Source: a virus
IMG/VR virus record: IMGVR_UViG_3300032249_000628
Coordinates: 1-64,000 of that record
DNA length: 64,000 nt
Reading direction: 5' to 3' (one strand)
A program made the position numbers and the translations under genes. Numbering within the stretch: the stretch's first letter is position 1; each line of letters starts with the position of its first letter. Shown piece after piece: positions 40,196 to 54,737 of this stretch. A model generated the notes under the pieces. It was not told the origin of the DNA, searched no databases, and saw only the letters and a list, made by a program, of their open reading frames with translations.

Positions 40196-40965
40196 TAGTT
40201 ACGCCACTCCTGTTGATAGCCGGTTATATCTTTTGGAATTAAATTCTTATCCCGCTGGTAATCATTGAGAACATCAATAATATCACTAGCGACTTTCTTA
40301 GAAACCTTTTTTCCGCTATCCACATTAAATTGCTTGAATAGCTTCTGTCCATCAATATTAAGTTGCTTGCACTTAACATCGATAAAATTGTACTGGGCAT
40401 CGCTCATACGACTCTGATCATCGTACTCGCCTTCGCTACTGGCCTTAGTAGCAGAAATAGCACGAACAATCTTGGCTGTATCTTTCTTTGTAAGTTCTTC
40501 CGCAGCAACACCCTTAATCTTAAGAGCCTTTCGTAAAGCTCTTGCTTCTGCTCTTGTGCTAGCAATAGCAACAGCAAAAGCACAGAACATATCATCGGTA
40601 TTGCCTTCCCAAGAGTCTGCTACTTCTGAATAAGTGACACCATTAGCAAACTTTACTGAAAAAACTACAGTAGCCCTACCGTGATGATCTTCTCTTTGAA
40701 CTGGAAACACTTGTGTTGGGCCACTAAAAACAATGGTTCCTAATACTAGTTCTGCTACTCGCCTCAAGCCAGCAACGAGAGGATGACCATCTACTAGTTC
40801 TGATTCATGGAAAAGACCCATAGCATAATCATGCCATTCCGCACTAAGCATAGATGGGGCATTAGATTCAATCATATTTTTAACCGATGTATCAGTGTTA
40901 CTAGGGGTGGATAATTCAACTCCTGCGAATAGATTCTCTGTCATTATTTCTGTGACTGTATTCAT
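40195..40965 (-). CDS. Putative single-strand annealing (Rad52/ERF-like) protein
   Basis: This 256-residue protein has H-P-L-V-A-G-L-R-R-V-A-E-L-V-L-G near residue 60, then V-F-S-V-K-F and the segment S-T-R-A-E-A-R-A-L-R-K-A-L-K-I-K-G at about 135-152. The last is reminiscent of the Rad52/Sak-type annealing core in phages, where proteins of this kind pair single strands in recombination. The C-terminal 70 residues (S-D-A-Q-Y-N-F-I-D, then I-D-x-x-K-L-F-K-Q-F) resemble the C-terminal module of recombinases that binds accessory factors. Neighbouring RecA/UvsX and SSB genes are compatible. Confidence is moderate because only motifs were compared. Confidence 0.45.
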   Translation of the reverse strand: MNTVTEIMTENLFAGVELSTPSNTDTSVKNMIESNAPSMLSAEWHDYAMGLFHESELVDGHPLVAGLRRVAELVLGTIVFSGPTQVFPVQREDHHGRATVVFSVKFANGVTYSEVADSWEGNTDDMFCAFAVAIASTRAEARALRKALKIKGVAAEELTKKDTAKIVRAISATKASSEGEYDDQSRMSDAQYNFIDVKCKQLNIDGQKLFKQFNVDSGKKVSKKVASDIIDVLNDYQRDKNLIPKDITGYQQEWRN

Positions 40966-41729
40966 ATTTCTATCTCAATATACCTTTCTGATTCTTTGGG
41001 AAACGACTTCTTTATTGTATCCAAGCAATTCAAAATGTCAACCCTCAATTTTTCTTTATCGGCTAAACACACGGAGTCCGATAGATTTTTTATTCTTACG
41101 ATTACCATGCCCTTGCTTAAGATCAAGCCGGTTTTATGGAAATCTGCTTTAATTTGTTTTTGTAACTTTTCTTCGCCCCATATTGGAAGAAAGTGGGAAG
41201 GGCCGTCTACCTCTATTATAGTCTTGATCGACGGTACGTACATGTCGATTTCTAGATTCTCATTTTGAATCAATTGTTTTTTATGATATTCTACTCTGTA
41301 TCCATGTTTCACAATTTCTTCATAAATAAACTTCTCTAGTTTTGAACCTTCTTTGCCAGCTAATTGTATGCTCTTTATAGCTGACTCAAGCATTTTTTCT
41401 TTCTCAATTTCTGGTATCTTCTGCCAACGCTCCTTGGCTTGTTTAATTTTATCCTCATAATCTTCCTGGCTCATGTCTTCCCAATACTTTTTGAGTCCAG
41501 AGCTTATCTTTATTTTTTCTTCGTGAGTTCTTTGTTTACCGCTAGTTGGATGAATAGAGATTCCTTTTTCGATAGCGTTCTTTTGCGCTTCGCTTTTAGT
41601 TTTAAGCTCAACGCCGCTTCTAATTAGAACTCTTCTAATTTTATTTGGATATGTTTTCATAGCTTCAGCTATTTCATATGTACTTTTATTTTGATTAGTA
41701 TACATATCCACTATTTTAGCTTCATCCAT
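40962..41729 (-). CDS. Vsr-like (EDxHD) endonuclease with HTH and NUMOD-type module
   Basis: The 255-residue protein has three parts. Residues 1-45 form a helix-turn-helix of the recombinase or NUMOD kind (T-Y-E-I-A-E-A-M-x4-N-K-I-R-R-V-L). A segment near 60-80 (H-P-T-S-G-K-Q-R-T-H-E-E-K-I-K) resembles DNA-binding modules of homing endonucleases. The C-terminal half fits the EDxHD PD-(D/E)XK fold: E132, D162, D175, H179 and D196, in the order S-K-L-E, I-D-M-Y-V-P, I-E-V-D-G-P-S-H and A-D-F-H-K. It probably nicks or cleaves DNA, and may be a free-standing homing endonuclease. It lies inside the operon with overlapping ends. Confidence 0.65.
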   Translation of the reverse strand: MDEAKIVDMYTNQNKSTYEIAEAMKTYPNKIRRVLIRSGVELKTKSEAQKNAIEKGISIHPTSGKQRTHEEKIKISSGLKKYWEDMSQEDYEDKIKQAKERWQKIPEIEKEKMLESAIKSIQLAGKEGSKLEKFIYEEIVKHGYRVEYHKKQLIQNENLEIDMYVPSIKTIIEVDGPSHFLPIWGEEKLQKQIKADFHKTGLILSKGMVIVRIKNLSDSVCLADKEKLRVDILNCLDTIKKSFPKESERYIEIEI

Positions 41730-42174
41730 TTTTTTGACCTTTCAGTATATCGACTATATTTTCGAAGTTTTTGCTTAGTCCAGTTGGGTTTTTGCCAGTG
41801 ATTCTTTTTATGTAAGACGCATCCTCTTCGTTTCTGCATATTATTTGTACTCCACGCGAAATAGCAAATAATATATTTAATGCTTTGAGTTTATTCTCCC
41901 ACCCATAGTAATAAAAAATATTTATCTTATTGACTATATTGAGTGAACTTATCAAGCTATTAAGATTTGTGACTATTAAATACCCATCAAAATTCCATAG
42001 GTCAGTACTATTGAATAGTCCAAAATTTAACTTTATGGGAGTATGACAAACCCCATTGTAAAATAAACTAGCATCCACAATCTTCTTATTTGCCAATTCT
42101 TTATTTAATTCTTGAGCTATACCTTCCATTTGATCGATATTGCTAAAATCATCGACATAAACTCCTATATTCAT
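41722..42174 (-). CDS. Small GT-B-type fragment-like protein of the glycosylation cassette
   Basis: The best start is the ATG at 42174, overlapping the upstream TGA as ATGA, with TAGGAG ten bases before it; a TTG three codons earlier would lie too close to that site. The 150-residue product starts I-G-V-Y-V-D-D-F and has alternating strand-helix pattern to L-I-V-T-N-L, as in a Rossmann half-domain. No donor-site motif is present. It resembles proteins that accompany glycosyltransferase clusters in phages. It may be a non-catalytic partner or a degenerate glycosyltransferase. Low certainty. Confidence 0.5.
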   Translation of the reverse strand: MNIGVYVDDFSNIDQMEGIAQELNKELANKKIVDASLFYNGVCHTPIKLNFGLFNSTDLWNFDGYLIVTNLNSLISSLNIVNKINIFYYYGWENKLKALNILFAISRGVQIICRNEEDASYIKRITGKNPTGLSKNFENIVDILKGQKNG

Positions 42175-42911
42175 TGATCCCAAGCTCCTATCATATTTGA
42201 GAAATAATTGTTACCCATATAATAATCTCTTTCAAACCCAGCGGATTGTAAGAATGGATTTAACGTCGATCCTATATCTAGATAAGTATTATTCTCATTA
42301 GCCTCTGTTAGTCTATGACATAATATATTACCAAAAGGGCCACAGCAAAACAGAAAAATCATGTTCTTGAATGCTTTTTCACGAACAAGCCAAGTCAATT
42401 CTTGAACCAAATCCCAATCTTCTTTCCAAGCATTGTTCTTAACTGGAACTGTTATATATGGAGTAAATGGCAGATTATCAGTCTTAGCGTTTTCATTGCA
42501 TACCAAAATAACTGGTCTGGTATTATAAAGAGGGACTATATTATCGACGTAGTATCTATAATTTGAATTTACCCAAATATCAGCCCAAGTTAAATGATCT
42601 TCGTTTTGCCCACTTAACCCCTTCATTTCTTTATGAGTTTTTAATCCAAAAACATTAACGCATGTTACTCCAACAAAATACCTAGGATTTTTATATTGAA
42701 AAGCTGCGATTAGTTCTTGTCGTTTTAATTGATCTTGTTGATCATTTGGATCAAACCAAAACTCTTTGTTATTAAGTTGGTTATTGGTCATGACTGCCCA
42801 TTCACCATCACAGAACTTAGAAAAACTTATATTTTCACCGTTCTCTAAAGCCTGCTTTAGAATCTTTATATCTTCTTTGAAGCTTTTATTTGGTGGAGTC
42901 GTGAACTTCAT
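42171..42911 (-). CDS. GT-D-type (DUF1792-like) putative glycosyltransferase
   Basis: The 246-residue protein contains F-S-K-F-C-D-G-E-W-A-V at residues 30-40. The D-G-E motif (D35, E37) is the hallmark of GT-D-fold transferases related to SP_1767, in which it binds UDP-glucose and metal. Further on are V-G-V-T-C-V-N-V-F-G-L, L-F-C-C-G-P-F-G-N-I and D-I-G-S-T-L-N-P, typical of the family's C-terminal half. It overlaps its upstream neighbour by 26 bases. It may add a sugar to an O-linked glycan or polymer made by the neighbouring enzymes. Confidence 0.55.
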   Translation of the reverse strand: MKFTTPPNKSFKEDIKILKQALENGENISFSKFCDGEWAVMTNNQLNNKEFWFDPNDQQDQLKRQELIAAFQYKNPRYFVGVTCVNVFGLKTHKEMKGLSGQNEDHLTWADIWVNSNYRYYVDNIVPLYNTRPVILVCNENAKTDNLPFTPYITVPVKNNAWKEDWDLVQELTWLVREKAFKNMIFLFCCGPFGNILCHRLTEANENNTYLDIGSTLNPFLQSAGFERDYYMGNNYFSNMIGAWDQ

Positions 42912-43680
42912 TTTCTTTCTCCTGCTCCGTTTCTTCTGCTACTATAGGATAGCCCATCTGTCTAACAAAATTCCAATATCTATTCATGCCTATATTAGCA
43001 TTATAATCCATAGAAATTGCAACTGGCTCTTCACCATATCTGATAGCTGTATCTGGCATCGATCCCCATAAGTCCTTATCATTTTTTGGATGAGGAGGCA
43101 CATAAGTATTTAATCCGAAATGTTTCTTAACGGCGTATGAAAGATGGGTATCTTCTCCGTATCTCATTGGAGAAACTTCTGGCATTTCTGCCCAAAACGC
43201 TCTTAGCCAAGTTTTTTCAAAAAACCAAGAGTGACACCCCATATCAACCCTAACCGTAGTTTCATTTGGGTTGCACCATCCTATAGCCGTATAGCTCTCT
43301 GGTGCTGGATAAGAAAGATCGTATCCGGCATTGGCTAAAACTCCCCGTGTGCTTAAAACCCCATAATGAGTTTGCATTGTTGTCAAACAATTTTCTAGCC
43401 ACTTTTTTCCGGGTATTGTATCATCATCCATTACGCAAACATACTTTGTTCTAGCATTGAGAGCCATCACAAATCTGCCCCAGCTTCCATAATCACTATT
43501 AGCTATAACAGAATGACACTCATTAATAATATTTTGATCAAAATCTAGGCTAAGTTTATCTGTTAAATTTACCCATAGCATTATTTCAAAATCTTGAACC
43601 GTTTGCTCCTTTAGTGCAGCATATTGTTCTTTTAGAGTGTGCGGTCTTTTGAATCCGTTTAATACAACTGTAATACTCAT
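42886..43680 (-). CDS. GT2-family glycosyltransferase
   Basis: This 264-residue GT-A-fold protein begins with S-I-T-V-V-L-N-G-F-K-R-P-H-T-L, a nucleotide-sugar binding start seen in GT2 enzymes. V-C-V-M-D-D-D-T-I-P-G at 81-91 is the metal-binding DxD (D85-D87), and W-F-F-E-K-T-W-L-R near 155 plus M-R-Y-G-E-D-T-H at about 170-178 look like the acceptor site. The start overlaps the upstream gene by 4 bases. It would transfer a sugar from a nucleotide donor. The acceptor is unknown. The Glu/Lys-rich C-terminal tail is not conserved-looking. Confidence 0.75.
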   Translation of the reverse strand: MSITVVLNGFKRPHTLKEQYAALKEQTVQDFEIMLWVNLTDKLSLDFDQNIINECHSVIANSDYGSWGRFVMALNARTKYVCVMDDDTIPGKKWLENCLTTMQTHYGVLSTRGVLANAGYDLSYPAPESYTAIGWCNPNETTVRVDMGCHSWFFEKTWLRAFWAEMPEVSPMRYGEDTHLSYAVKKHFGLNTYVPPHPKNDKDLWGSMPDTAIRYGEEPVAISMDYNANIGMNRYWNFVRQMGYPIVAEETEQEKENEVHDSTK

Positions 43681-44543
43681 GATATTCCTCCAATTAATTT
43701 GTCTATTTTATTTAGATATTCACTTGAAGGTAATTGTGAGAGTATAGACTTGACTCTATGAAAACAGGTGTGCCTATCAAGTAGTTTTGTTCTCAATTCT
43801 GACTTATCCGAATTTGGATCGCATATATCTACTTCTGTTCTGAATATTTTTTTAATTTTATCCGAAACCATTTGTCTGAGTTGTTTGTCATCAATATCAT
43901 ATCCCACAGATTTTCCATAATAAATAGCATCATATAAAATTTGAGGCACCGTTGATCCAAAGCTTCTAAAAATGAGTAGGTCATAATTGCTATAAATATT
44001 AGATAATTGATTTATTGGCAGCAGTATATCAACATCGTTTTCTAGATTTTTGTTATACGATATTGTATGATACGGACAGTCAAAATGCTTTATATGATCT
44101 TTGGATAAAACTATTTGTCCGACTTTTATAGAATATGGCAAGTTACCCTTGCTTAAAAATAAATCTGCTCCAAATCCTATTTTTGCTAGTCGAGCTTCAG
44201 ATTTGATTTCCGACTCATCGCTATTAGTGAATAGGAAAGCTACAGGCACTTCGTGTTCTTTTAGTATTCTTTCCGTGTTATCCACTACTTGTTGATTAGC
44301 TCCGGTGATATTGATAATAAGTTGAATTCCACCATTCTCTTTGATATAAGAGATCACATCGGACATAATGCTTGTGATGTGGGTTATGTAGTAATTTGGC
44401 TTAACTGTATCGAATATATCATAAGCACTCACTTTCGATGGATTCCAAAGAACCGACTTGCACCCTATGTCTCTTAAAGTGGCATCAATATACATAGGTT
44501 CAGTGTGCGTGAGTGATGAATAATTACCAATAATAAAATTCAT
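43677..44543 (-). CDS. GT-B-like protein of the glycosylation cassette
   Basis: This 288-residue protein has an alpha/beta pattern with N-Y-S-S-L-T-H-T-E-P near the start and a second half containing I-F-R-S-F-G-S-T-V-P-Q-I-L-Y-D-A-I-Y-Y-G-K-S-V-G, which corresponds to the donor-binding helix of GT-B-fold enzymes. The C-terminus has R-H-T-C-F-H-R-V, as in CgeB-like glycosyltransferases. A catalytic residue set cannot be named. It overlaps both neighbours by 4 bases. A glycosyltransferase or accessory protein is likely. Confidence 0.45.
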   Translation of the reverse strand: MNFIIGNYSSLTHTEPMYIDATLRDIGCKSVLWNPSKVSAYDIFDTVKPNYYITHITSIMSDVISYIKENGGIQLIINITGANQQVVDNTERILKEHEVPVAFLFTNSDESEIKSEARLAKIGFGADLFLSKGNLPYSIKVGQIVLSKDHIKHFDCPYHTISYNKNLENDVDILLPINQLSNIYSNYDLLIFRSFGSTVPQILYDAIYYGKSVGYDIDDKQLRQMVSDKIKKIFRTEVDICDPNSDKSELRTKLLDRHTCFHRVKSILSQLPSSEYLNKIDKLIGGIS

Positions 44544-45280
44544 ATATTTTCCTTTATAGCATGATATGTTTTAATGTTGCTTATTTTTTGAAGCTTATGT
44601 TTATTTGGTATGCACTTTATCCTGTGTTTGGTTTTGAGTAGTTCATTTAGTGCTTCAAATAAAAATTTACTTTTGTTATCCTGAGACACTATTATTTTTC
44701 TAAATAATTCTACTGTCTCAAAGTTATGCAAGTATAATATTTCTGACCATATTGTTCTTGCTCCAAAAGAAAAATACTCTGCATCATGCTTCTCGTTTAT
44801 ATTTATTCCTATTTCTAAATTTTCAGAAGGATTGGTTTCTGTCAAGACGCATGTTTCGTCATTTTTGATCAAAGATAGACTCTTATTATTTAATAGTAGA
44901 TTACCATCACAAATCAATACCTTATCGTTCAGAGTATTATTAAGTGCTATTCTAGCACTCTCACAAGAGTTGCAACTATTAAACATTTGATTCTCTACTA
45001 TTCTTATATTGACCTTATTATGATATGTACGGATATATTTACATATTTTTTCTGTATCGAAGCCTACGCACAAAATAATCTCATTATTGAGAAAAGTCTG
45101 CTGTATAGCCTGTATCTGAAGATCAATCAATCTTTTCTTTGCTATACTTATTAGCGGTAAAGGTCCATAAGATTTCATTCTATACCCCGGAGAATCGCAC
45201 AGCAAGATAACCGTCATCAACTCAGAAGTTGGCTTGGGTAAAAATCCAGCTTTTGGTGATGTAATGCATTTCGTTTTCAT
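44540..45280 (-). CDS. Sugar nucleotidyltransferase-like protein
   Basis: The start is taken as the ATG at 45280, not a TTG two codons earlier that only overlaps the preceding stop. The 246-residue product has M-T-V-I-L-L-C-D-S-P-G-Y-R-M at 22-35, followed by P-L-P-L-I-S-I-x-K-K-R-L-I, a pattern like the NTP-binding signature of NTP-transferase and choline-phosphate transferases, though the glycine-rich part is weak. K-V-L-I-C-D-G-N-L-L-L near 119-129 gives the metal-binding Asp. It would make a nucleotide-activated donor for the cassette. The last 80 residues are not recognised. Confidence 0.55.
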   Translation of the reverse strand: MKTKCITSPKAGFLPKPTSELMTVILLCDSPGYRMKSYGPLPLISIAKKRLIDLQIQAIQQTFLNNEIILCVGFDTEKICKYIRTYHNKVNIRIVENQMFNSCNSCESARIALNNTLNDKVLICDGNLLLNNKSLSLIKNDETCVLTETNPSENLEIGININEKHDAEYFSFGARTIWSEILYLHNFETVELFRKIIVSQDNKSKFLFEALNELLKTKHRIKCIPNKHKLQKISNIKTYHAIKENI

Positions 45281-45282
45281 AA

Positions 45283-46014
45283 TCAAATATCTATATACAT
45301 GCCTATGTTTTTTGCAGTGTTAACAATATCGTCTATATTGTTTTTATAATTATCGATTTGGCTATTGGCATAATTCATTCTATATGCCATATTAGAAATT
45401 ACCAAAACTTCGCCACATTTAGCGATTATAAACTTTTCCAGATTTTGATTAACTAAATCATTCAGCTTATTTAAGTTTGCAAAATCAAAATCGCCGGAAA
45501 CAACCATATGGCAGTTTCTTTTGGACTTTAATACAAATTCATGTAGAAATTGCTTGGATTCTAAACAAGCAGAAATTTTGATAGTCTTATTGCGAGAATA
45601 TATGTCTAGAACCATAGACTTTACATTCGATGGCGAAACGTAATTGTGAAATAAATTAATGTTAGTTTTATTCTTGTAATATTCTATTTTGGGAATAGTA
45701 TCAATTAGATAATTTCTAAATTCCTCTGACATTTCATTGCAATCAATCATAATATCAAAATTAAGCGTAGATTCTTCCATAGCTTTATCCAAATTTTGTA
45801 CGCCGCCATTCCAAGTTAATGGCCTGTACAGATTACAAAATTTATTCACAACATAGAACTCTTTTTCATTATCATAAGCTTCGATAATGTCTGTTTTATC
45901 AAATTTGTCTATCCTGTTGGCAAAACATCCAACTTGAGTTAATCCGCTATATATTGCGAAAATACAGTTTTTGCAACTAGTTTGAAGCCTGCGATCTTGT
46001 GACTGAAATTTCAT
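45283..46014 (-). CDS. Cys-cluster protein of the glycosylation cassette
   Basis: The 243-residue protein has a four-Cys set at C14, C17, C30 and C60 in the arrangement C-x2-C, then G-C-F-A-N-R-I and later F-C-N-L-Y-R-P. This is close to an iron-sulphur or zinc cluster, and recalls the SPASM or auxiliary-cluster modules of radical-SAM enzymes, but no CxxxCxxC is present. The rest has a GT-A-like or Rossmann-like alternating pattern (N-F-D-I-M-I-D-C-N-E). It overlaps the previous gene by 38 bases. It might act as a redox or binding partner for the glycosyltransferases. The role is unknown. Confidence 0.4.
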   Translation of the reverse strand: MKFQSQDRRLQTSCKNCIFAIYSGLTQVGCFANRIDKFDKTDIIEAYDNEKEFYVVNKFCNLYRPLTWNGGVQNLDKAMEESTLNFDIMIDCNEMSEEFRNYLIDTIPKIEYYKNKTNINLFHNYVSPSNVKSMVLDIYSRNKTIKISACLESKQFLHEFVLKSKRNCHMVVSGDFDFANLNKLNDLVNQNLEKFIIAKCGEVLVISNMAYRMNYANSQIDNYKNNIDDIVNTAKNIGMYIDI

Positions 46015-46405
46015 AATTATATCCCTTGATTGATGATTTGTTGATTGTCAAGTTTTTATTCTGTAGCAATGAAATTATATCACTTACATTGTATATTCCA
46101 CGCTTAGAAAAGATTAGTTCATTATATTTCTGAGTATTTAAATTACCCAGTAAAATATCTCTAGACACGATGGACAATTCAGTACCGCCAATCACTAGTT
46201 CGCTATTAAATCTCATCCTGCTTTTAACATCTTCTAGAAACGTGTCTATAAATTGGACAGGGATACTATCTAGAGCATCGGTAGCTAAAATAGATTGAGC
46301 AGCATTATTTGGAATTTGTCCCAAATCTACTTTCCCGTATATAATAGGGATCATCACATATCCCTCTATAACCTTGTCAATATTCTCAGTAATATAAACT
46401 TTCAT
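45977..46405 (-). CDS. Methyltransferase-like protein
   Basis: This 142-residue protein has a layout like a class I methyltransferase half: an N-terminal beta strand, V-D-L-G-Q-I-P-N-N-A-A at about 26-36, then V-K-S-R-M-R-F-N-S-E-L-V-I-G-G-T-E-L-S-I (60-80). The C-terminal beta strands and G-Y-N-Y-E-I match the last strands of type 11 methyltransferases. The Gly-rich SAM-binding loop is weak or absent, so the enzyme may be inactive. It starts 4 bases within the preceding gene of the operon. Confidence 0.35.
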   Translation of the reverse strand: MKVYITENIDKVIEGYVMIPIIYGKVDLGQIPNNAAQSILATDALDSIPVQFIDTFLEDVKSRMRFNSELVIGGTELSIVSRDILLGNLNTQKYNELIFSKRGIYNVSDIISLLQNKNLTINKSSIKGYNYEISVTRSQASN

Positions 46406-47400
46406 CTTATTGAAACCTCATAAGTTATATCGAAAATTTCATTCCACTTTTTAATAAATGTATCCTCTGAAAAACGCTCTAATATAGTTTTTCTAGCATT
46501 TTCTCCAAGAGTTTTTTGTAAATCTTTGTCTTTGAGAACTTTCTTCAAATAGATTTGTAATTCTTTTTCGTCATTTGAAATAAACCCATTTACTCCATTT
46601 TGAATAATTTCTGGTATCATACATGTAGCAGTCGAAACTACAGCACACCCACAACTCATAGCTTCTAGTAAAGACGTTGGAATAGGGCTTAAAGTTGAGC
46701 TATTGAAATATACTCCACACGAATTATATTCTTGTACTAATTCTTCTGTGGATGATGCTGACTTCGATAAACCCTTAGTATCTCCAACGAGTTTTGTTTT
46801 GAATGTATCAGTAACCCTTTGCCAGCCACTGTAATTGAGGCAATAGTCTCTATTTACAAAATCATTTGCTACAGTTAGAACATAGTCTTGCTTTTGTTCT
46901 TCATTTGGTTTAAATGTTTCAGAATCTATACCATGATGGACTACCATAGAATTATATTTTATATTCCAAGCTTCCATAGAAAATTTGGATATAAATATAT
47001 TGATATGTCCCACCATCTTTGTCATTGCTTCTATATTTTCTTTACTAAGTGTTTGCGGGGTTGGTAAGGTATGTTCTAGACATATAATTGGAATATTTAA
47101 CCTTTGATTTATTTGCTGTGCAGCTTGATACTGCCAATACTTACTTTGTACCAATATAAAATCATATCCAATAAAATCGCATATATTTGATTCTGGAAGG
47201 ATATAATAATTAGATGGGGTGGGTAATTGTAAAGAATTCCACTTTTTCAGATTTGGCAAGTGAAATGAATAAAAATTATGTCCAGTTTTGCAAAGTTGAG
47301 TTTCATACCTTTCGTGAGTTGGGAAGGTAAGTATATTATATTGCTCTGGTTTTGTTTTATTAGCTATACTAATCAATCTTTCTACGGAATTATTAATCAT
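46402..47400 (-). CDS. GT4-like glycosyltransferase
   Basis: The 332-residue protein ends in a typical GT-B donor-binding domain: H-H-G-I-D-S-E-T-F-K-P-N (about 155-166), then P-T-S-L-L-E-A-M-S-C-G-C-A-V-V-S-T (about 242-258), and G-V-N-G-F-I-S near 270. The Glu of the E-x7-E motif is present at the second position, while the first is Ser. It would take UDP- or GDP-sugar as donor. It overlaps the preceding GT4 gene by 8 bases. The acceptor cannot be inferred. Confidence 0.7.
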   Translation of the reverse strand: MINNSVERLISIANKTKPEQYNILTFPTHERYETQLCKTGHNFYSFHLPNLKKWNSLQLPTPSNYYILPESNICDFIGYDFILVQSKYWQYQAAQQINQRLNIPIICLEHTLPTPQTLSKENIEAMTKMVGHINIFISKFSMEAWNIKYNSMVVHHGIDSETFKPNEEQKQDYVLTVANDFVNRDYCLNYSGWQRVTDTFKTKLVGDTKGLSKSASSTEELVQEYNSCGVYFNSSTLSPIPTSLLEAMSCGCAVVSTATCMIPEIIQNGVNGFISNDEKELQIYLKKVLKDKDLQKTLGENARKTILERFSEDTFIKKWNEIFDITYEVSIR

Positions 47401-48508
47401 TTAGAGCATCCTTCATTTTTTGTCCGATTTTATCATAAGAGAATTTAACGGCTTGTTTTATTCCAGCCTGTCTATCTATAGAATCGCCCTTCTCATAATA
47501 GAATCTCATAGCTTTTTTGATTTCTTGCTCACTAGGAGTAAACCATTCTTCTCTTCCAGTAAATAAATTTGGAAAAGCCGGATCAGAGTGATTACAAACA
47601 GAGTATACTCCGTTTACCAACCACCCAGTATCTGTATTATTTTCGTCTATAAATTCTCTAGGACCACCCTCTTTACTACATATTGGGGTTTTTCCAAAAC
47701 ACATAGCATCAAATGCTGGGATAGACCACCCTTCTCCGTGAGATGGGGCTACAAAACAATCACAAGATTTATGGATAGATAATATCTGATCATCTGTTAG
47801 ATCATCACAGATAATGAGTTCTTTATGATATTGATTTATATCACTATATATTCTTAGTTCTTTTTTAATAGTAGAACAAATATTAGTAACATGTTGAAAT
47901 AAGTCTTTGCCATTGATTCCAAACTTTTTGACTTTTAATATCAAGCTAACCGGTTCAAAGTGATGAAATTCGCTATGAAAACATCTGATAATAGACTCTA
48001 TATTTTTTCTATCATTTAGATCGCCTATGTAGTAAAATTTAAACTTATGATTACTTGGTCCAAAATTAATGCTATTTTTTGTAGCCTCATATTTGTTTAA
48101 GTCAGAAGCGTATGGTATTACTTTTACAGTCTTTACTCCGTCATTAATCAAAGACTCTTTTAGAGACTCGTTAGGAACCCAAACCTCGTCCACTATTTTG
48201 AGATTAGTTATCCAGTTATTATATCTTAGTGTGTTGGATTCCCCTACATAATATGCAATGTTTTTCTTAAATTTCTGCGTACCAACAATATGGTGAGGTA
48301 AAACATTTTGTATACAAAAATCTATGTTTTGCAACGATTTGTTTTCTAGAGATAAAATTCTTTTGTCAATTTCTGGTTGATAATTAGTTAGCTTTATATT
48401 TCTAGCAACAATATCTATTCCAGCAGAGCTTGCTGCAAGTAAAGAATTTATAGCCGCATGTGACCAGCCACTGCCTTCTTTGTAATGTCCTATAAATAAT
48501 GTTTTCAT
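47393..48508 (-). CDS. GT4-like glycosyltransferase
   Basis: The 371-residue protein begins with a phosphate-binding-like start (K-T-L-F-I-G-H-Y-K-E-G-S-G-W-S) and carries the signature H-G-E-G-W-S-I-P-A-F-D-A-M near 253-265, followed by G-K-T-P-I-C-S-K-E-G-G-P-R-E-F. The E-x7-E motif here is E-x7-D, a tolerated variant in GT4. V-P-N-E-S-L near 112 and a Rossmann C-terminal domain are present. The start overlaps the upstream gene by 4 bases (ATGA-like). It is probably part of a sequential glycan synthesis pathway. Confidence 0.72.
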   Translation of the reverse strand: MKTLFIGHYKEGSGWSHAAINSLLAASSAGIDIVARNIKLTNYQPEIDKRILSLENKSLQNIDFCIQNVLPHHIVGTQKFKKNIAYYVGESNTLRYNNWITNLKIVDEVWVPNESLKESLINDGVKTVKVIPYASDLNKYEATKNSINFGPSNHKFKFYYIGDLNDRKNIESIIRCFHSEFHHFEPVSLILKVKKFGINGKDLFQHVTNICSTIKKELRIYSDINQYHKELIICDDLTDDQILSIHKSCDCFVAPSHGEGWSIPAFDAMCFGKTPICSKEGGPREFIDENNTDTGWLVNGVYSVCNHSDPAFPNLFTGREEWFTPSEQEIKKAMRFYYEKGDSIDRQAGIKQAVKFSYDKIGQKMKDALND

Positions 48509-50166
48509 ATAAGTCTAAATGCCTCTGCTCTTTTTTGTTCCCAAAAATTTCTTCTGTTGCATAACCCTGCCATTTGTTGATAAGCTATATTAAAATCAAA
48601 CGGCATTCTCCCCTGTTTACCATCAAAGGCGGCTGAACTCTCGTTAAAATACATACCTCCTGTCGTGGAAGTAGTGGCTTTGTACATCAAGTCTCTGACT
48701 AATCGCGCTTCCATAAAACTGTTGATTTTATCTGGTTCGCAAAGCACCTTTGTTATTAACCATCTAGCTAAGTCTTGGTGACTAGCATTTGGTGGTAATG
48801 TTTCTGGTTTTGGTTCTGGCTTAAAAATACGCAGAGGGGATTTCCATGTTAAGTCTTCTGGTAATATATTAACACTGTCGAAATAATCTTCCCAAGCTTT
48901 TCCGCTTTGATTCCACTGATAATGTTTTAGAAATGCTTGTCTAGTTTCAAAGCCCATCTTTTTTCTCATACTAATAGGCTGATTAAAGAATTCTATTAAT
49001 TTTTGTGCTGCTAATTCGTTATCTGGAACTGCTCTTAGACATCCTGTTTCTAGTTCTTTGTATAGAGCTTTTGGCTTTATTGGTATTCCTCCAAGATTTC
49101 TAACCACGCTTTCCATAGCAGAGTAATCGGTAGCCATAACTGGAATTCCACACGCTGCCGCTTCCACTTGTGGCAAACCGAATCCTTCACAATTAGCATA
49201 CTGAACATATATGTCAAACAGATTTATTATCTTGGATAAATCCTCATACTCTACCCCATTCTTTACATTAGATAGAGAGGCACCATATTGTCCAGTATAT
49301 GGTGACTGTGCTACCGCCCCCTTGAATAAAGACACAAACGGTCTATTGGTTTGGCCGCATATGTATGTAAACAATACTTTAGAAGATAGCTTGTATTCTT
49401 GAAGTAGCTCTGGTATGTCCCACCCCAAATCTGGATAGCTAGTATGACAATACAAATAAAAGTTTGAGTTGTCATCAACGTTATCAAGCAATATACGAAA
49501 TGCTTTAAATAGGTCGGGGTATAGTTTTCGCCTCTGATTACGCATTACTGTACCAATAATTTTAGCGTCTGGATCGATTCCCAATGCGGATCGTAGCCCA
49601 GCCCTATCTTCTATTGGAGTATATGCACCGTGGGCCGAAGGTGGTGCTATCCCAAGATATTTAATTTTGCCACCAGATTGTTCTTTTAATACTTCTCCAG
49701 CCCATTCCGAATAAGTTAAACAAGCATCAGCTGATTCATAGGTTGATATCCATTGTCTTGCTTGAGGTTTTGCATCTACTGTTGGCATAATGCACCATTT
49801 AAAGAATTTTCTATATGGTGATCTTTCTGCAAAATCCAACATCCAAAAGTCTCTGATATCACAAACTATATCTGGTTGGAAATCCAAGCAAACGGGTTCA
49901 AATATCCACTCACCGAATTGAGCTATAGGATTATTAGCATATTGAGATTTTTCTTCTTCTGATGCATCCTGCGGAGGAACAACGCCATAAAACTTCCAAG
50001 GAATATTGGAGGCTCTACGATCATTTCTCTCGCCATATGATGCTAATTCTGCTAACTCATATTTGCCAGTACTATGTAAATAGTTTAGTATTTCTCTAGT
50101 ATATGTGGCGTATCCGGTATTTAAGAATGTAGCTTCGCTACAAAATAGTATTCGTTTTTTTCTCAT
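48505..50166 (-). CDS. Long GT4-family glycosyltransferase
   Basis: The preferred start is the ATG at 50166, four bases past the SSB stop. An earlier in-frame ATG at 50208 would put 14 extra residues inside that gene. The 553-residue product begins K-R-I-L-F-C-S-E-A-T-F-L-N-T-G-Y-A-T-Y, a usual GT4 start. N-R-R-K-L or a neighbouring R-N-Q-R-R-K-L (near 215) corresponds to the donor phosphate site, and C-E-G-F-G-L-P-Q-V-E-A-A (E-x7-E) near 333-346 is canonical. A 130-residue C-terminal extension has no recognised motif. It is the first gene of the cassette after SSB. Confidence 0.78.
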   Translation of the reverse strand: MRKKRILFCSEATFLNTGYATYTREILNYLHSTGKYELAELASYGERNDRRASNIPWKFYGVVPPQDASEEEKSQYANNPIAQFGEWIFEPVCLDFQPDIVCDIRDFWMLDFAERSPYRKFFKWCIMPTVDAKPQARQWISTYESADACLTYSEWAGEVLKEQSGGKIKYLGIAPPSAHGAYTPIEDRAGLRSALGIDPDAKIIGTVMRNQRRKLYPDLFKAFRILLDNVDDNSNFYLYCHTSYPDLGWDIPELLQEYKLSSKVLFTYICGQTNRPFVSLFKGAVAQSPYTGQYGASLSNVKNGVEYEDLSKIINLFDIYVQYANCEGFGLPQVEAAACGIPVMATDYSAMESVVRNLGGIPIKPKALYKELETGCLRAVPDNELAAQKLIEFFNQPISMRKKMGFETRQAFLKHYQWNQSGKAWEDYFDSVNILPEDLTWKSPLRIFKPEPKPETLPPNASHQDLARWLITKVLCEPDKINSFMEARLVRDLMYKATTSTTGGMYFNESSAAFDGKQGRMPFDFNIAYQQMAGLCNRRNFWEQKRAEAFRLI

Positions 50167-50170
50167 TTTA

Positions 50171-50482
50171 TCAATCTTCAAAGTCTTGGTGACAAAAATC
50201 AAACTCATTGATTCTAAAAATCACAGAGCGATTATCCTTGGATACATTTTTTGCAGAAGCCAAAACATTTAATTTGGTTCCCTTTGTCGCATACTTTTCT
50301 AAGGTTTCAGCACCGGTATGCCAAGCTTCGCAGTAAAGATAGGTTGGTATTCTATTCTTTTCGCCATTTTTGGTTTTACGATAAGTATAAACTACCATTA
50401 CAAATTCTGCTTTTACAATATCATCTATGACGGATATTCTTGGATTTTCTACTAAATATCCGGTAAAAGAACACATATTCAT
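50171..50482 (-). CDS. ssb: Single-stranded DNA-binding protein (SSB-like)
   Basis: The 103-residue protein has an OB-fold pattern: M-C-S-F-T-G-Y-L-V-E-N-P, then V-K-A-E-F-V-M-V-V-Y-T-Y-R, P-T-Y-L-Y-C-E-A-W-H-T-G-A-E and Y-A-T-K-G-T-K-L-N-V, as in SSB proteins. It lacks the long Gly/Pro linker of cellular SSBs, and ends H-Q-D-F-E-D, a short acidic tail that could contact partner proteins. AAGGAG lies 8 bases before the start. It would protect single strands at the replication fork and in annealing. It sits between the polymerase and the sugar cassette. Confidence 0.75.
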   Translation of the reverse strand: MNMCSFTGYLVENPRISVIDDIVKAEFVMVVYTYRKTKNGEKNRIPTYLYCEAWHTGAETLEKYATKGTKLNVLASAKNVSKDNRSVIFRINEFDFCHQDFED

Positions 50483-50536: not shown

Positions 50537-52096
50537 CTACACTTCGTGTATTTGATTAACAATGAACGAATTATCATTTTCGCCAACAGAGCCACAAAAG
50601 ATTAGATTATTGCCTTCATATAGAACGTATTTGTATTTATCTTTTACTTTAGGAAATACTATCACGCTATCTAACATGCAAGTATCATCCTCTATAGTTA
50701 AGAACGCCATCATCTGACCCTGTGATTCACCCTTGGTTATTTTATATTCCGAAATACGCTGCACATTGGCAACTACGCATAAGTCTTTACCCTTTTTGCC
50801 ATTTATAATTTCTTTGCAAGTTGTATTGGCCGCTGATGTATCAGAAGTTTCTACCTTTGTCATGCTCACCGGACAACCCAAAAACTTTACTTCTTGGTCT
50901 ATTAACCAGCTTGGCTCGTCCTCTAGATCATATGGTGGATTAATTAAAAGCTGAATTTCATTCTCTATTGCTTGTTTTCTATCAGCTTTACTTGTGCCGC
51001 CACCCTCTTTTTTCGTTGGAGCCAAGTCTGTTAAGCAGTCTACGAATGTTTTCCACTTTTTATCTGAGTACTTTTCTTTGATCCAAGTTTGTTCAGCTTT
51101 GGTTAAAACTCTATATATCTCGTAATCATATAAAGCCTTATTTCTTGTGATCTTATCTTCAAAATCTCTAAAAAATCCAACTGATGCTAATGCCTTAAAT
51201 GCTGTCGAGCTAATCTTTGGGCTTAGATATAGTAATATCTCTAGCCAGTTAAACTTTGTGATGGGCTTAGATAGTTCAGTTTCTGCTTCTTTAATGGATT
51301 CTATTAGCTTGTCGCCCGTCTTGCCCGTCAATGACTTTATATCTTTAATCCCAAAGTAGATTTTACCCTTAGTAAAATTGAATTTACTAGCATAGTTTGC
51401 CAGTGAAGGGGTCTTGACTTGTATATCGAATAGTTTAGCTTCTGAGATTAATTCGTATGTTTCTCTCTGTGGGTCTTGTTTTTCTATGGCATGATACAAA
51501 TATGATAAAAAGAATTCTTGGGTATTGTGCGCCTTAAAATAGGCACTCCAATAAGAACATACGGCATATGAAACGCTGTGGGATTTATTAAATGCATATC
51601 TTGAAGACTTTTCAATCCATCCGAAGATTTGTTCTGCTTCTTCTTTGGTGACTGTATTAACCTTCTGTGCGCCCTCTATAAAAGACTTTTTAACTTCGTT
51701 CATAAGAGCCGCGTTTTTCTTACCAATAGCCTTACGAAGAACGTCAGCCTCTTGAAGATTAAATCCCGCAATCTTTTGAGCAATACGCATAGATTGTTCT
51801 TGATAAACAAGAATACCATACGTTGGCTTTAGTATTTCCTCAAGGGCTGGATGAAGATATGTGACTTCTTCACGACCGTGTTTTCTATCAACATAGTGCT
51901 GTGTCATGCTTTTGCCGTCAACAAAAGCCTTTAGGGTTCCCGGTCTAATAATTGCTATCAAGGCCGACAATTCTTCTAAATTAGTTGGTGCTAGCTTTTT
52001 AGACCAAGATTTACCAAGGTTACTCTCTAGCTGAAAGATACCCTTAGTTTTTCCTTCTGCAAATAATTGCCAAGTGGCTTTATCGTTATAATCCAT
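50537..52096 (-). CDS. dnaE: DNA polymerase III alpha, C-terminal half (fingers, tail)
   Basis: This 519-residue product starts at the DnaE fingers: G-I-F-Q-L-E-S-N at 19-26, L-I-A-I-I-R-P-G-T-L (46-55), Y-G-I-L-V-Y-Q-E-Q-S-M and K-A-I-G-K-K-N near 90-127, and A-F-N-K-S-H-S-V-S-Y-A near 173-183. These are the fingers and nucleotide-binding parts of C-family polymerases. OB-like strands follow at the end. It lacks the PHP and catalytic Asp residues, which are in the product at 53130-54737. The start overlaps the HNH stop by 11 bases. No intein sequence is seen at its N-terminus. Confidence 0.85.
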   Translation of the reverse strand: MDYNDKATWQLFAEGKTKGIFQLESNLGKSWSKKLAPTNLEELSALIAIIRPGTLKAFVDGKSMTQHYVDRKHGREEVTYLHPALEEILKPTYGILVYQEQSMRIAQKIAGFNLQEADVLRKAIGKKNAALMNEVKKSFIEGAQKVNTVTKEEAEQIFGWIEKSSRYAFNKSHSVSYAVCSYWSAYFKAHNTQEFFLSYLYHAIEKQDPQRETYELISEAKLFDIQVKTPSLANYASKFNFTKGKIYFGIKDIKSLTGKTGDKLIESIKEAETELSKPITKFNWLEILLYLSPKISSTAFKALASVGFFRDFEDKITRNKALYDYEIYRVLTKAEQTWIKEKYSDKKWKTFVDCLTDLAPTKKEGGGTSKADRKQAIENEIQLLINPPYDLEDEPSWLIDQEVKFLGCPVSMTKVETSDTSAANTTCKEIINGKKGKDLCVVANVQRISEYKITKGESQGQMMAFLTIEDDTCMLDSVIVFPKVKDKYKYVLYEGNNLIFCGSVGENDNSFIVNQIHEV

Positions 52097-52460
52097 TTGT
52101 ATCTTCCTTTAGTTTATCAACTAGTTCATCAATAGTCATCTTTATAGTATTATTATGTGATTGATTGTTATTTTTATGAGTAGCTTCCATGTGACAATTA
52201 TGACATAATAATCTACACTTTTTAATTTCTGATATCAATTCTTCTGTGCTATGTTTTTTGCCATATAACATAAACATTCCACCAGCACAACTTCTTTTGG
52301 AACAACCATTTTTAGTTATTTCAGCTTTTTCAAATCCCGGTAAATGATCAAAACATATCGCTGCTGGGTGCTTATTGTATCCACAATTAGAACACCCATT
52401 AGACAATTTGTATTTATCTATCCAATGTTTTCTGTGTGCTATTGTTTCTTTATTATTCAT
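52086..52460 (-). CDS. HNH endonuclease lodged between polymerase halves
   Basis: This 124-residue protein has a zinc-binding HNH pattern: C23-S-N-C26-G, F-D-H-L-P-G (D38, H39), and L-L-C86-H-N-C89-H. Such nicking or double-strand endonucleases are typical free-standing homing endonucleases of phages. It starts 4 bases within the exonuclease stop and ends 11 bases within the start of the polymerase C-terminal half, so it lies exactly in the break. It may have caused the break or ride with it. Cutting specificity is unknown. Confidence 0.8.
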   Translation of the reverse strand: MNNKETIAHRKHWIDKYKLSNGCSNCGYNKHPAAICFDHLPGFEKAEITKNGCSKRSCAGGMFMLYGKKHSTEELISEIKKCRLLCHNCHMEATHKNNNQSHNNTIKMTIDELVDKLKEDTNGL

Positions 52461-53137
52461 TTGATATAAAGAGGATTATTTGCAAATGCCTTATCAAAAG
52501 TAATATTCTGATATACTGATCTGTGGGTCTTCAGTAGCTTTATAAAGATATTAGCTGAATCCTTAACGTCTTGTAAAGCGTCGTGTGCGTTTTCTTTACT
52601 TAGACCCATTCGTTCTCTTAGCGAATCCATACTTATAGACTTGATACTTGGATCGCTCTCTGTCCAAGCAAAGACATTATCCATAATATCTATCTTATAT
52701 ACTTTGCTAAATAACTTTTGTTGCTCACGCTCAGTATCCCAAGGTCCAAATTCTTTGCATAGTCTATTAATAATATGCATATCAAATCCAATAATATTAA
52801 ATCCAACTGGTATTGGAGCAAAGAATGGTTCGCCCTTCCAATTATACTGATCAACGAACTTTGTGAATTTGTTCCATACAGATTTCAATGACGGTGCTAG
52901 CTCTAGTTTTTCTTTAGTCTTGCCAGTAATTCTCAAAGCTTCATCTTGAATTGGATCAAACCCTGCCGCAATAGCCTTGTCATCGTCTAAGATGGGTTTA
53001 ATTTCACTATTAAATGTTCCCTTAAGATTCAGGCTTCGACCATCTAATGCAATAGCTGCAATTTGTGTCGGCTGAGTCTTGTGTGGATTTCTTGAGCCTG
53101 TTTCAAAGTCAAATATGATATAATCTCTATTAGCCAT
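52457..53137 (-). CDS. DnaQ-like 3'-5' exonuclease (proofreading)
   Basis: The 226-residue protein has a DEDDh exonuclease set: D10-x-E12 (F-D-F-E-T), D119 (N-I-I-G-F-D), H185 and D190 in H-D-A-L-Q-D. The family is the epsilon subunit of DNA polymerase III, which removes mispaired 3' ends. It starts 8 bases within the end of the polymerase N-terminal half and lies between the two halves, so it is likely co-translated with both. It may join the split polymerase as its proofreading subunit. The spacing of motifs is normal for the family. Confidence 0.85.
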   Translation of the reverse strand: MANRDYIIFDFETGSRNPHKTQPTQIAAIALDGRSLNLKGTFNSEIKPILDDDKAIAAGFDPIQDEALRITGKTKEKLELAPSLKSVWNKFTKFVDQYNWKGEPFFAPIPVGFNIIGFDMHIINRLCKEFGPWDTEREQQKLFSKVYKIDIMDNVFAWTESDPSIKSISMDSLRERMGLSKENAHDALQDVKDSANIFIKLLKTHRSVYQNITFDKAFANNPLYIK

Positions 53138-54737
53138 TTATTGTTTCCTTGTCTTTAATAAACATCAATTTATCTAATAAAGAAAGACCAAGCACATCAA
53201 ACTTGACATGACCAAGACTTTCTAAATCAGACATTTCTAGACCAGCTATCTTTTCAGATGAATCACGCTGATCCACCATTGGGCAAACATTGTACAGTTC
53301 GTGTTTAGATATAACTACGCCAGCGGCGTGTTTTCCTTGAGTTTTAAATGTTCCTTCAATCTTTATTGCTTGATCAAAATATTCTGCATAATCTCCAGAT
53401 AATTTCCCATCTTCATCTATATGGCAGAAATCACGTAATTCATCCGCATTGTGAATTAAAGCCCAGCGAATGATAGACCTATCTTCATCATCCATGTCTG
53501 CCAACTGATCTGAAATTTCAGCTTCATTAGGAATGCTCTTTGTTATAGCGTTCATTTCTGCAAAAGAACACGCCTCATTGATACGCAATACTTCTTTAAT
53601 AGCACTACGCCCCTGTAGTCTACCAAACGTAATCATTTGACTAACATGATCGTTGCCATACTTATTCTTTAAATATAGTAATACATCATCGCGTTTTTTT
53701 GCTGGAACGTCCATATCAATATCTGGTAGTGAAATATGATCAGCACTATTTCTACCAGCGTTATAAAATCTAGAAAATAGCAAATCGAACTCCAGCGGAT
53801 CAATCTTGGTAATGCCAATAAGATATGATATCAGACATCCAGCGGCTGAACCTCTACCGGGACCAGATAGCCACCCTTGATCATTCACGTACTTTATAAT
53901 GTCTTGAACGATTAGAAAATATCCAAAGAGATTAGCACCCTTAATAACATCAAACTCTTCTTTGAATCTTTCTAAATACTTCTCTTTATCTTCTGGCTTA
54001 GATACCTTGTCGCCGTCTATCAAAAGACCCTTCCATCCTACGCGACACAATTCTTTTAGATAATCTTCTTCTGTTTCCCCGTTTGGGCATGGAAATGCTG
54101 GTAGCATTGGCTTGCTAAGAATATCATATTCTTCACAACTATCGATGATAGTATTAATATGTTCAGCATCTTTCTTAGAAGCTTCCGGCAGTGCTTTTTC
54201 AAAAGTTGACTTTGACCACACGCAAAGGTCATCATGTGTAAATTGATACTCTAGTTCTTTTGATAATTCACCCTTATGAATTTGTTTATGAACTTTGGGT
54301 AAGGTAGTCTTTAATTCAGAACACAATAAAACCCTATGTAGTTTAGCATCTTCGCTATGAACATAGTAGCTAATAGGAAATAGTTTAGAGTTATTAGAAA
54401 CGCTAATTATATTATTCTTTTTCAGAACCTTGTTAAGTATATCGCTAGGAACATTTTCACTCTCATCTAGAGAAGAAACTATCTTAATAAGGTCGAACCA
54501 GCCATCCTTATTCTTGGCAAATAACGTGAAGTCATCAAATGAACACCCAATAATGGGCTTAATGCCGACCTTTTTACAAGCTTTATAAAAGCGCACAGCG
54601 CCAGATATGGTTTTATAGTCAGTAAGACCACAGGCTATATAGCCTTCTTCTTTGCACTTTTGTGCTAGCTCGTCTGGCTTAGAAAAACCTTTTAGCAAAC
54701 TATAGTGTGTGTAATTTCTTAATGGACACCAATTCAA
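53130..54737 (-). CDS. dnaE: DNA polymerase III alpha, N-terminal half (PHP, palm)
   Basis: The preferred start is the TTG at 54737, because AAGGAG (54745-54750) lies 7 bases before it and the longer reading from 54755 would bury that site. The 535-residue product begins M-N-W-C-P-L-R-N-Y-T-H-Y-S-L-L. The PHP metal-site pattern is degenerate (N-Y-T-H-Y; L-T-D-Y). The palm carries G-P-G-R-G-S-A-A-G near 292-300, P-D-I-D-M-D-V near 338-344 and K-F-D-V-L-G-L near 512-518, the catalytic Asp set of C-family polymerases. It stops 17 residues after that motif. The fingers are on the separate gene at 50537-52096. A sigma-70-type promoter lies upstream. Confidence 0.87.
   Translation of the reverse strand: MNWCPLRNYTHYSLLKGFSKPDELAQKCKEEGYIACGLTDYKTISGAVRFYKACKKVGIKPIIGCSFDDFTLFAKNKDGWFDLIKIVSSLDESENVPSDILNKVLKKNNIISVSNNSKLFPISYYVHSEDAKLHRVLLCSELKTTLPKVHKQIHKGELSKELEYQFTHDDLCVWSKSTFEKALPEASKKDAEHINTIIDSCEEYDILSKPMLPAFPCPNGETEEDYLKELCRVGWKGLLIDGDKVSKPEDKEKYLERFKEEFDVIKGANLFGYFLIVQDIIKYVNDQGWLSGPGRGSAAGCLISYLIGITKIDPLEFDLLFSRFYNAGRNSADHISLPDIDMDVPAKKRDDVLLYLKNKYGNDHVSQMITFGRLQGRSAIKEVLRINEACSFAEMNAITKSIPNEAEISDQLADMDDEDRSIIRWALIHNADELRDFCHIDEDGKLSGDYAEYFDQAIKIEGTFKTQGKHAAGVVISKHELYNVCPMVDQRDSSEKIAGLEMSDLESLGHVKFDVLGLSLLDKLMFIKDKETING

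What the first reader, a model, noticed from the sequence alone, without database searches (positions are those of the whole stretch)
50537..54737. DNA polymerase III alpha broken into two genes with an exonuclease and an HNH gene inside the break
The N-terminal half (to 53130) stops 17 residues after its last catalytic Asp motif; the C-terminal half (from 52096) starts directly at the fingers. Between them lie a DnaQ-like exonuclease and an HNH endonuclease, all overlapping by 4-11 bases, so translation is coupled. Neither half shows intein sequence (no leading Cys, no terminal His-Asn), unlike the split-intein dnaE of cyanobacteria, which is also cut elsewhere (near the F-N-K-S-H motif, intact here). 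All catalytic Asp residues are on one chain and the fingers on the other, so activity would need non-covalent assembly. This could be a stable, endonuclease-linked gene fracture with a proofreading gene trapped inside.
Basis: partly seen in the sequence, partly recalled or inferred. Interest (0 to 1): 0.78.

Follow-up and report, generated by a model that had tools for sequence, protein, structure and literature searches.

The report
Phage replicase permanently split in two
These viruses of bacteria encode their only DNA-copying enzyme as two separate protein halves, with a proofreading gene always between the two half-genes; the whole viral lineage has kept this break, so two loose halves of a replicase apparently work, although this has not been tested in the laboratory.

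Summary
A DnaE-type (C-family) DNA polymerase III alpha is encoded as PHP-palm-thumb (53130-54737, TTG start) and fingers-HhH-OB (50537-52096). A DEDDh exonuclease and an HNH gene lie between, overlapping by 8, 4 and 11 nt. The break is neither local nor recent. All 151 distinct IMG/VR loci holding both halves have the order N-half, exonuclease, C-half, in separate frames, down to 41-47% identity, and the sampled ones form one clade; 79 of 80 bacterial homologues and the isolate phages checked are unsplit here. In 16 relatives of 106-176 kb the split enzyme is the only family A, B or C polymerase found. The break maps between E. coli alpha ~576 and ~586, the palm/fingers junction; all catalytic Asp stay on one chain. 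Both halves are under purifying selection and predicted to fold well. No intein or known intron lies at this break. Twelve relatives carry an extra split intein inside the palm, where splicing can reseal that cut, yet leave this one open. The window's HNH is a late passenger (absent from 149 of 151 loci and from the closest relative); the exonuclease is always there. Best reading: an obligate two-chain replicase with its proofreader. Precedents exist: new variant of a known kind.

The parts
53130..54737 (-). N-half of DnaE-type DNA polymerase III alpha: PHP, palm and thumb; GPGRGSAAG at residues 292-300, catalytic PDIDMD 338-343 and KFDVLG 512-517; 535 aa, TTG start
   Evidence: Pfam PHP and DNA_pol3_alpha; motifs; AF2 pLDDT 92.3; PDB fold match to E. 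coli and Thermus alpha
52457..53137 (-). DEDDh (DnaQ-like) 3'-5' exonuclease, 226 aa, always between the two polymerase halves in this clade
   Evidence: Pfam RNase_T 7.7e-16, phrog_192 DNA polymerase exonuclease subunit; invariant D10, E12, D119, H185, D190
52086..52460 (-). small HNH endonuclease gene, 124 aa; recent insertion at the exonuclease/C-half boundary
   Evidence: phrog_3106 5.2e-16 and phrog_2255 2.8e-15; found at this place only in the window and L012
50537..52096 (-). C-half of DNA polymerase III alpha: fingers, helix-hairpin-helix, OB fold; 519 aa
   Evidence: Pfam DNA_pol3_finger 2.3e-49, weak HHH_6 and OB-fold matches; AF2 pLDDT 91.2; PDB fold match to alpha
53130..53137 (-). 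8-nt overlap of N-half stop and exonuclease start
   Evidence: sequence
52457..52460 (-). 4-nt overlap (ATGA) of exonuclease stop and HNH start
   Evidence: sequence
52086..52096 (-). 11-nt overlap of HNH stop and C-half start
   Evidence: sequence

Best explanation
The genes encode a complete C-family replicase in two chains plus its proofreader. The N-half (PHP-palm-thumb, all catalytic Asp) and the C-half (fingers-HhH-OB) fold separately and pair through the native palm/fingers interface, without a peptide bond. The DEDDh exonuclease, translated between them by coupled re-initiation, supplies proofreading. Shown: gene structure, domain content, clade-wide conservation, monophyly of the sampled split sequences, purifying selection, lack of intein or known intron at the break, lack of another family A, B or C polymerase in large relatives. 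Inferred: physical pairing, polymerase activity, the exonuclease acting on this polymerase, translational coupling. The HNH gene is a late free-standing passenger at a boundary that many mobile genes use, and is not the cause of the break.
For: 151 of 151 distinct loci have N-exo-C in order, 0 with N and C in one frame. Split clade is monophyletic, SH-aLRT 100. Bacterial homologues 79/80 unsplit, the 80th cut by the contig end. Sixteen relatives of 106-176 kb have one DNA_pol3_alpha locus and no family A or B polymerase. The break falls between E. coli alpha ~576 and ~586, so no domain is lost. Predicted folds are confident and match alpha structures. dN/dS is below about 0.1 for N, C and exo where computable (dS is saturated). 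N-C distance correlation is 0.93. No intein model hits the window halves, whereas relatives with inteins elsewhere do hit. No Rfam intron. Twelve relatives carry a split intein at GPGRG^SAAG inside the N-half but leave the palm/fingers break unhealed. Precedent: the split gene 43A/43B polymerase of Aeromonas phage 25 co-purifies and is active (PMC2988022).
Against: No biochemical, proteomic or complex-structure evidence. N-C distance correlation is expected for any linked genes. Records are metagenomic and partial, so a second polymerase in the window's own phage, or one too divergent for the three family models, is not excluded. Whole-query TM-scores of the C-half are moderate (0.46-0.67), as expected for a multi-domain chain modelled alone.
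Confidence: 0.8

Rival explanations
1. The halves are joined after all, by a hidden split intein, RNA trans-splicing or frameshifting, giving one alpha chain.
For: Relatives carry real split inteins in the same polymerase at another site.
Against: No intein match in the window halves; the C-half starts directly in the fingers, without a His-Asn end and nucleophile; no Rfam intron; ORFs overlap, leaving no room for intron halves between them; one to three genes lie between N and C, so no single frameshift joins them.
Confidence: 0.05
2. The split was made by a homing endonuclease like the one present now (as mobE split nrdA in phage Aeh1), and the HNH gene is a remnant of that event.
For: An HNH gene does sit in the break, and homing endonucleases are known to split phage genes (PMC2988022).
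Against: This HNH is at this place only in the window and L012. L008, the closest relative, has exonuclease and C-half overlapping directly, with no insert. Other relatives carry unrelated Endonuclease VII-type or other HNH genes, methyltransferases or glycosyltransferases there. An older, lost endonuclease as the cause is not excluded.
Confidence: 0.07
3. The exonuclease is a structural third subunit that bridges the two halves, so that the active core is an obligate three-chain complex.
For: 151 of 151 positional conservation, strong purifying selection, overlap with the C-half start in about two thirds of loci.
Against: Gene order and coupling are equally explained by co-regulation; E. coli epsilon binds the PHP domain, which lies on the N-chain (own knowledge); no complex was modelled.
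Confidence: 0.25
4. The broken polymerase is a decaying gene and the phage uses the host replicase.
For: The gene is in two pieces with other genes inside.
Against: Both halves keep catalytic and structural residues across the clade, with dN/dS below about 0.1; a replication module (primase, DnaB-like helicase, UvsX-like recombinase, SSB) is co-encoded.
Confidence: 0.04

Closest known systems
Split gene 43 (43A/43B, B-family polymerase) of Aeromonas phages 25 and 44RR (PMC2988022)
   Same: A phage replicase in two chains, with a mobile endonuclease gene associated with the break in phage 25; the halves co-purify and polymerise
   Different: B family, T4-like phages, few members; here C family, a whole clade, another break site, and a proofreading gene in the break
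nrdA split by mobE in phage Aeh1 (PMC2988022)
   Same: An essential enzyme works as two chains, with an HNH gene between the half-genes
   Different: There the endonuclease insertion is tied to the split; here the split is far older than the HNH gene
Split minimal DNA polymerase III of group 2.2 jumbo phages (PMC7824862)
   Same: A C-family catalytic subunit in two proteins, predicted to reconstitute
   Different: Theirs is a minimal core on distant genes beside a family B replicase; here all alpha domains are present, the genes are adjacent, and it is the only replicase found
Cyanobacterial split-intein DnaE
   Same: DnaE encoded as two genes
   Different: No intein at this break; that site (at FNKSH) is intact in the window
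'Fractured genes' with split inteins and free endonucleases (Dassa et al. 2009; paper not held, known by citation)
   Same: Fractured phage-type replication gene with endonuclease genes in the break; this arrangement does occur at GPGRG^SAAG in 12 relatives
   Different: The palm/fingers break has no intein halves

Membership tests
C-family DNA polymerase (DnaE-type PolIII alpha) | Palm of the Pol-beta type with three catalytic Asp (PDID.D and KFD.LG) | tested here: met
   DNA_pol3_alpha 4e-68; PDID.D columns invariant in 16 and 50 sequences; PDIDMD 338-343, KFDVLG 512-517
C-family DNA polymerase (DnaE-type PolIII alpha) | PHP, fingers, HhH and OB domains in DnaE order | tested here: met
   PHP and fingers, weak HHH_6 and OB, structures
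C-family DNA polymerase (DnaE-type PolIII alpha) | Polymerase activity | not testable with these tools
   No assay possible
DEDDh proofreading exonuclease (DnaQ-like) | Asp, Glu, Asp, His, Asp active site | tested here: met
   D10, E12, D119, H185, D190 invariant in 15 sequences; RNase_T 7.7e-16
DEDDh proofreading exonuclease (DnaQ-like) | Binding to the polymerase | not tested
   No complex modelled
Gene split by a homing endonuclease (Aeh1 nrdA type) | Endonuclease gene inside the break | tested here: met
   HNH 52086-52460
Gene split by a homing endonuclease (Aeh1 nrdA type) | Presence of the endonuclease coincides with the split; relatives lacking it are intact | tested here: not met
   Nearly all split relatives lack this HNH in the break; L008 is split without it
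Split-intein DnaE / fractured genes | Intein N- and C-parts flanking the break | tested here: not met
   No TIGR01445, TIGR01443 or PF14890 match in the window halves, while relatives L128 and L067 match above cut-off at another site
Split minimal PolIII of jumbo phages | Core-only halves on distant genes, with a family B polymerase | tested here: not met
   Full domain set, adjacent genes, no PF00136 in 17 records

The most novel reading that the evidence does not exclude
A whole phage lineage replicates its genome with an obligate multi-chain C-family replicase, in which palm and fingers are separate polypeptides and the proofreading exonuclease, encoded in the break, is a structural bridge, so that polymerase and proofreader assemble co-translationally as one three-chain core.
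Probability: 0.25. Interest if true: 0.78.

Novelty: new variant of a known kind. Interest (0 to 1): 0.62.

Why it matters
If it works as inferred, fingers and palm of a replicative polymerase need not be covalently joined, and this state can be kept through a whole lineage as the only replicase. Relatives provide a natural contrast: a cut inside the palm carries split-intein halves that can reseal it, while the palm/fingers cut is left open. That makes testable which joints of a polymerase must be covalent. It also gives ready-made split polymerases for enzymology, and a case in which gene fission, mobile endonucleases, inteins and a proofreading gene meet at one locus.

Tried and rejected
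Sequencing or assembly artefact: rejected by 151 distinct loci. Intron or trans-spliced RNA: no Rfam match in the window or six relatives, and no space between ORFs. Intein at this break: not found. HNH as the cause: rejected by distribution. Second polymerase: none found in the record or in 16 large relatives. Cellulophaga phiST/phi13:1 as the same split: rejected; its break lies between the GxGRGSAGG and PDID motifs, inside the palm. Close isolates: none (best about 33% identity for the N-half). Intermediates on the long stem (1.33) between split and unsplit: not reached, as profile scans return only the best 80. Paper searches found no report of this arrangement, but Kazlauskas and Venclovas 2011 and Dassa et al. 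2009 are not held. Long branches make the placement of distant isolate phages in the tree unsure.

Full report
What is there. On the minus strand, the N-half (53130-54737), a DEDDh exonuclease (52457-53137), an HNH gene (52086-52460) and the C-half (50537-52096) overlap by 8, 4 and 11 nt. An SSB gene follows (50171-50482). The N-half carries PHP and the Pol III alpha catalytic domain, the C-half the fingers with weak HhH and OB matches. The N-half probably starts at TTG 54737, behind GAAGGAG. The window belongs to a 70,969-bp virus record with one DNA_pol3_alpha match.

Where the break lies. The N-half aligns to E. coli alpha up to residue 563 and continues about 13 residues. The C-half profile begins at residue 586. 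So the cut is at the palm/fingers junction after the third catalytic Asp, and only part of a linker is missing. AlphaFold2 gives confident folds for both halves alone (pLDDT 92.3 and 91.2), and Foldseek matches both to solved alpha structures. The N-terminal PHP has lost canonical histidines (NYTHYSLL, LTDYKT; my reading from family knowledge), consistent with proofreading by the separate exonuclease.

How widespread it is. Three IMG/VR scans gave relatives from 90% down to 41-47% identity. In all 151 distinct loci with both halves and the exonuclease, the order is N, exonuclease, C; none has N and C in one frame. A tree of concatenated halves puts all sampled split sequences in one clade (SH-aLRT 100, stem 1.33), apart from bacterial DnaE and isolate phages. 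Of 80 bacterial loci, 79 are unsplit and one is cut by its contig end. The isolate phages examined are unsplit here. The Cellulophaga phages have two genes, but with the break elsewhere.

Does it matter to the phage. Sixteen relatives with records of 106-176 kb hold one DNA_pol3_alpha locus each (fragmented in two of them) and no family A or B polymerase. dN is 0.03-0.25 against dS above 1.4 where computable, so dN/dS is below about 0.1 for N, exonuclease and C; dS is saturated, so values are rough. Pairwise distances of N and C correlate at 0.93, which linked genes would show anyway. Exonuclease and C-half overlap in 82 of 123 distinct loci, given my automatic start-codon choice, which suggests coupled translation.

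The HNH gene. Among the loci it occurs in the break only in the window and L012. In L008, the closest relative (87%), exonuclease and C-half overlap directly. Elsewhere the exonuclease/C boundary holds an Endonuclease VII-type gene (33 loci), another HNH or methyltransferase-like genes; the N/exonuclease boundary holds another endonuclease-like family (10 loci), methyltransferases, glycosyltransferases or small ORFs. These boundaries are insertion hot spots; the HNH is one visitor.

Inteins nearby but not here. In 12 loci (L067, L068, L072, L073, L076, L104-L106, L128, L132, L135, L142; some near-identical) the N-half itself is cut at GPGRG^SAAG: the first piece ends in an intein N-part beginning with Cys (TIGR01445 above cut-off in L128 and L067), and the second begins with an intein C-part ending in VHN before SAAG. 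Between the pieces of L104, L128 and L135 lies an endonuclease-like gene with a YPDFII...VEIKG motif (weak Phage_endo_I and TnsA-like matches). L016 and L067-L073 carry further inteins in the C-half, including at FNK^SH. So in the same genomes the cut inside the palm has the means of splicing, while the palm/fingers cut has none. This is the strongest indirect argument that the palm/fingers joint tolerates being open.

Mechanism. I infer that N and C pair through the native interface, and that the exonuclease proofreads. Precedent that this can work: gene 43A/43B of Aeromonas phage 25 co-purify and polymerise, and split NrdA of Aeh1 is fully active (PMC2988022). A predicted split of a minimal Pol III core in jumbo phages is published (PMC7824862), but differs in domain content, gene location and the presence of a family B replicase.

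Origin (inference only). In Pseudomonas phage KPP12 a small gene annotated 'putative DNA polymerase' (ORF55) lies directly upstream of the intact polymerase gene; I suspect an exonuclease but did not test it. Tandem duplication of an exo-pol pair with complementary loss would yield N-exo-C; invasion by a now lost endonuclease or intein would too. My data do not decide.

Limits. All relatives are metagenomic contigs; only three polymerase families were searched; no complex was modelled; the host is unknown.

Noticed in passing
L104:3570-6337, L106, L128, L132, L135, L142, L067, L068, L072, L073, L076: Split intein at GPGRG^SAAG inside the N-half, with or without an endonuclease-like gene (YPDFII...VEIKG) between the pieces; resembles the 'fractured genes' arrangement
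   Followed up: partly
L016:10473-14109; L067:9303-11297: Inteins in the C-half: one at RPG^C with an HNH-like stretch inside and a split one at FNK^C...SN^SH in L016; a contiguous one at FNK^S...SN^SH in L067 and kin
   Followed up: partly
L117 and kin, N/exonuclease gap (about 190 bp); L017 and kin (about 240 bp): Two different conserved small ORFs (about 60-80 aa) between N-half and exonuclease, one in 43 loci and one in 37; no Pfam match
   Followed up: partly
L161 (Cellulophaga phage phi13:1) 5191-8791: DnaE in two genes broken inside the palm, with an unexplained tail on the first piece (YKLTLEDGSIVELPEGTVV...) and a short leader on the second; could be a hidden Hint-like element
   Followed up: no
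L129, L137, exonuclease/C-half gap (2.7-3.7 kb): Large inserts including a prepilin-like protein (GFTLVELLVVIAIIGVL...AREAARRANCMSNMRQ) of a type I associate with Planctomycetes; a possible host clue
   Followed up: no
L072:9290-10681: A further insertion in the second N piece leaves the palm in three frames, one with a stop; real insertion or decay unclear
   Followed up: no
window 42171-50208: Run of glycosyltransferase-like and related genes between the structural genes and the replication module; a second HNH/homing-endonuclease-like gene at 40962-41729
   Followed up: no
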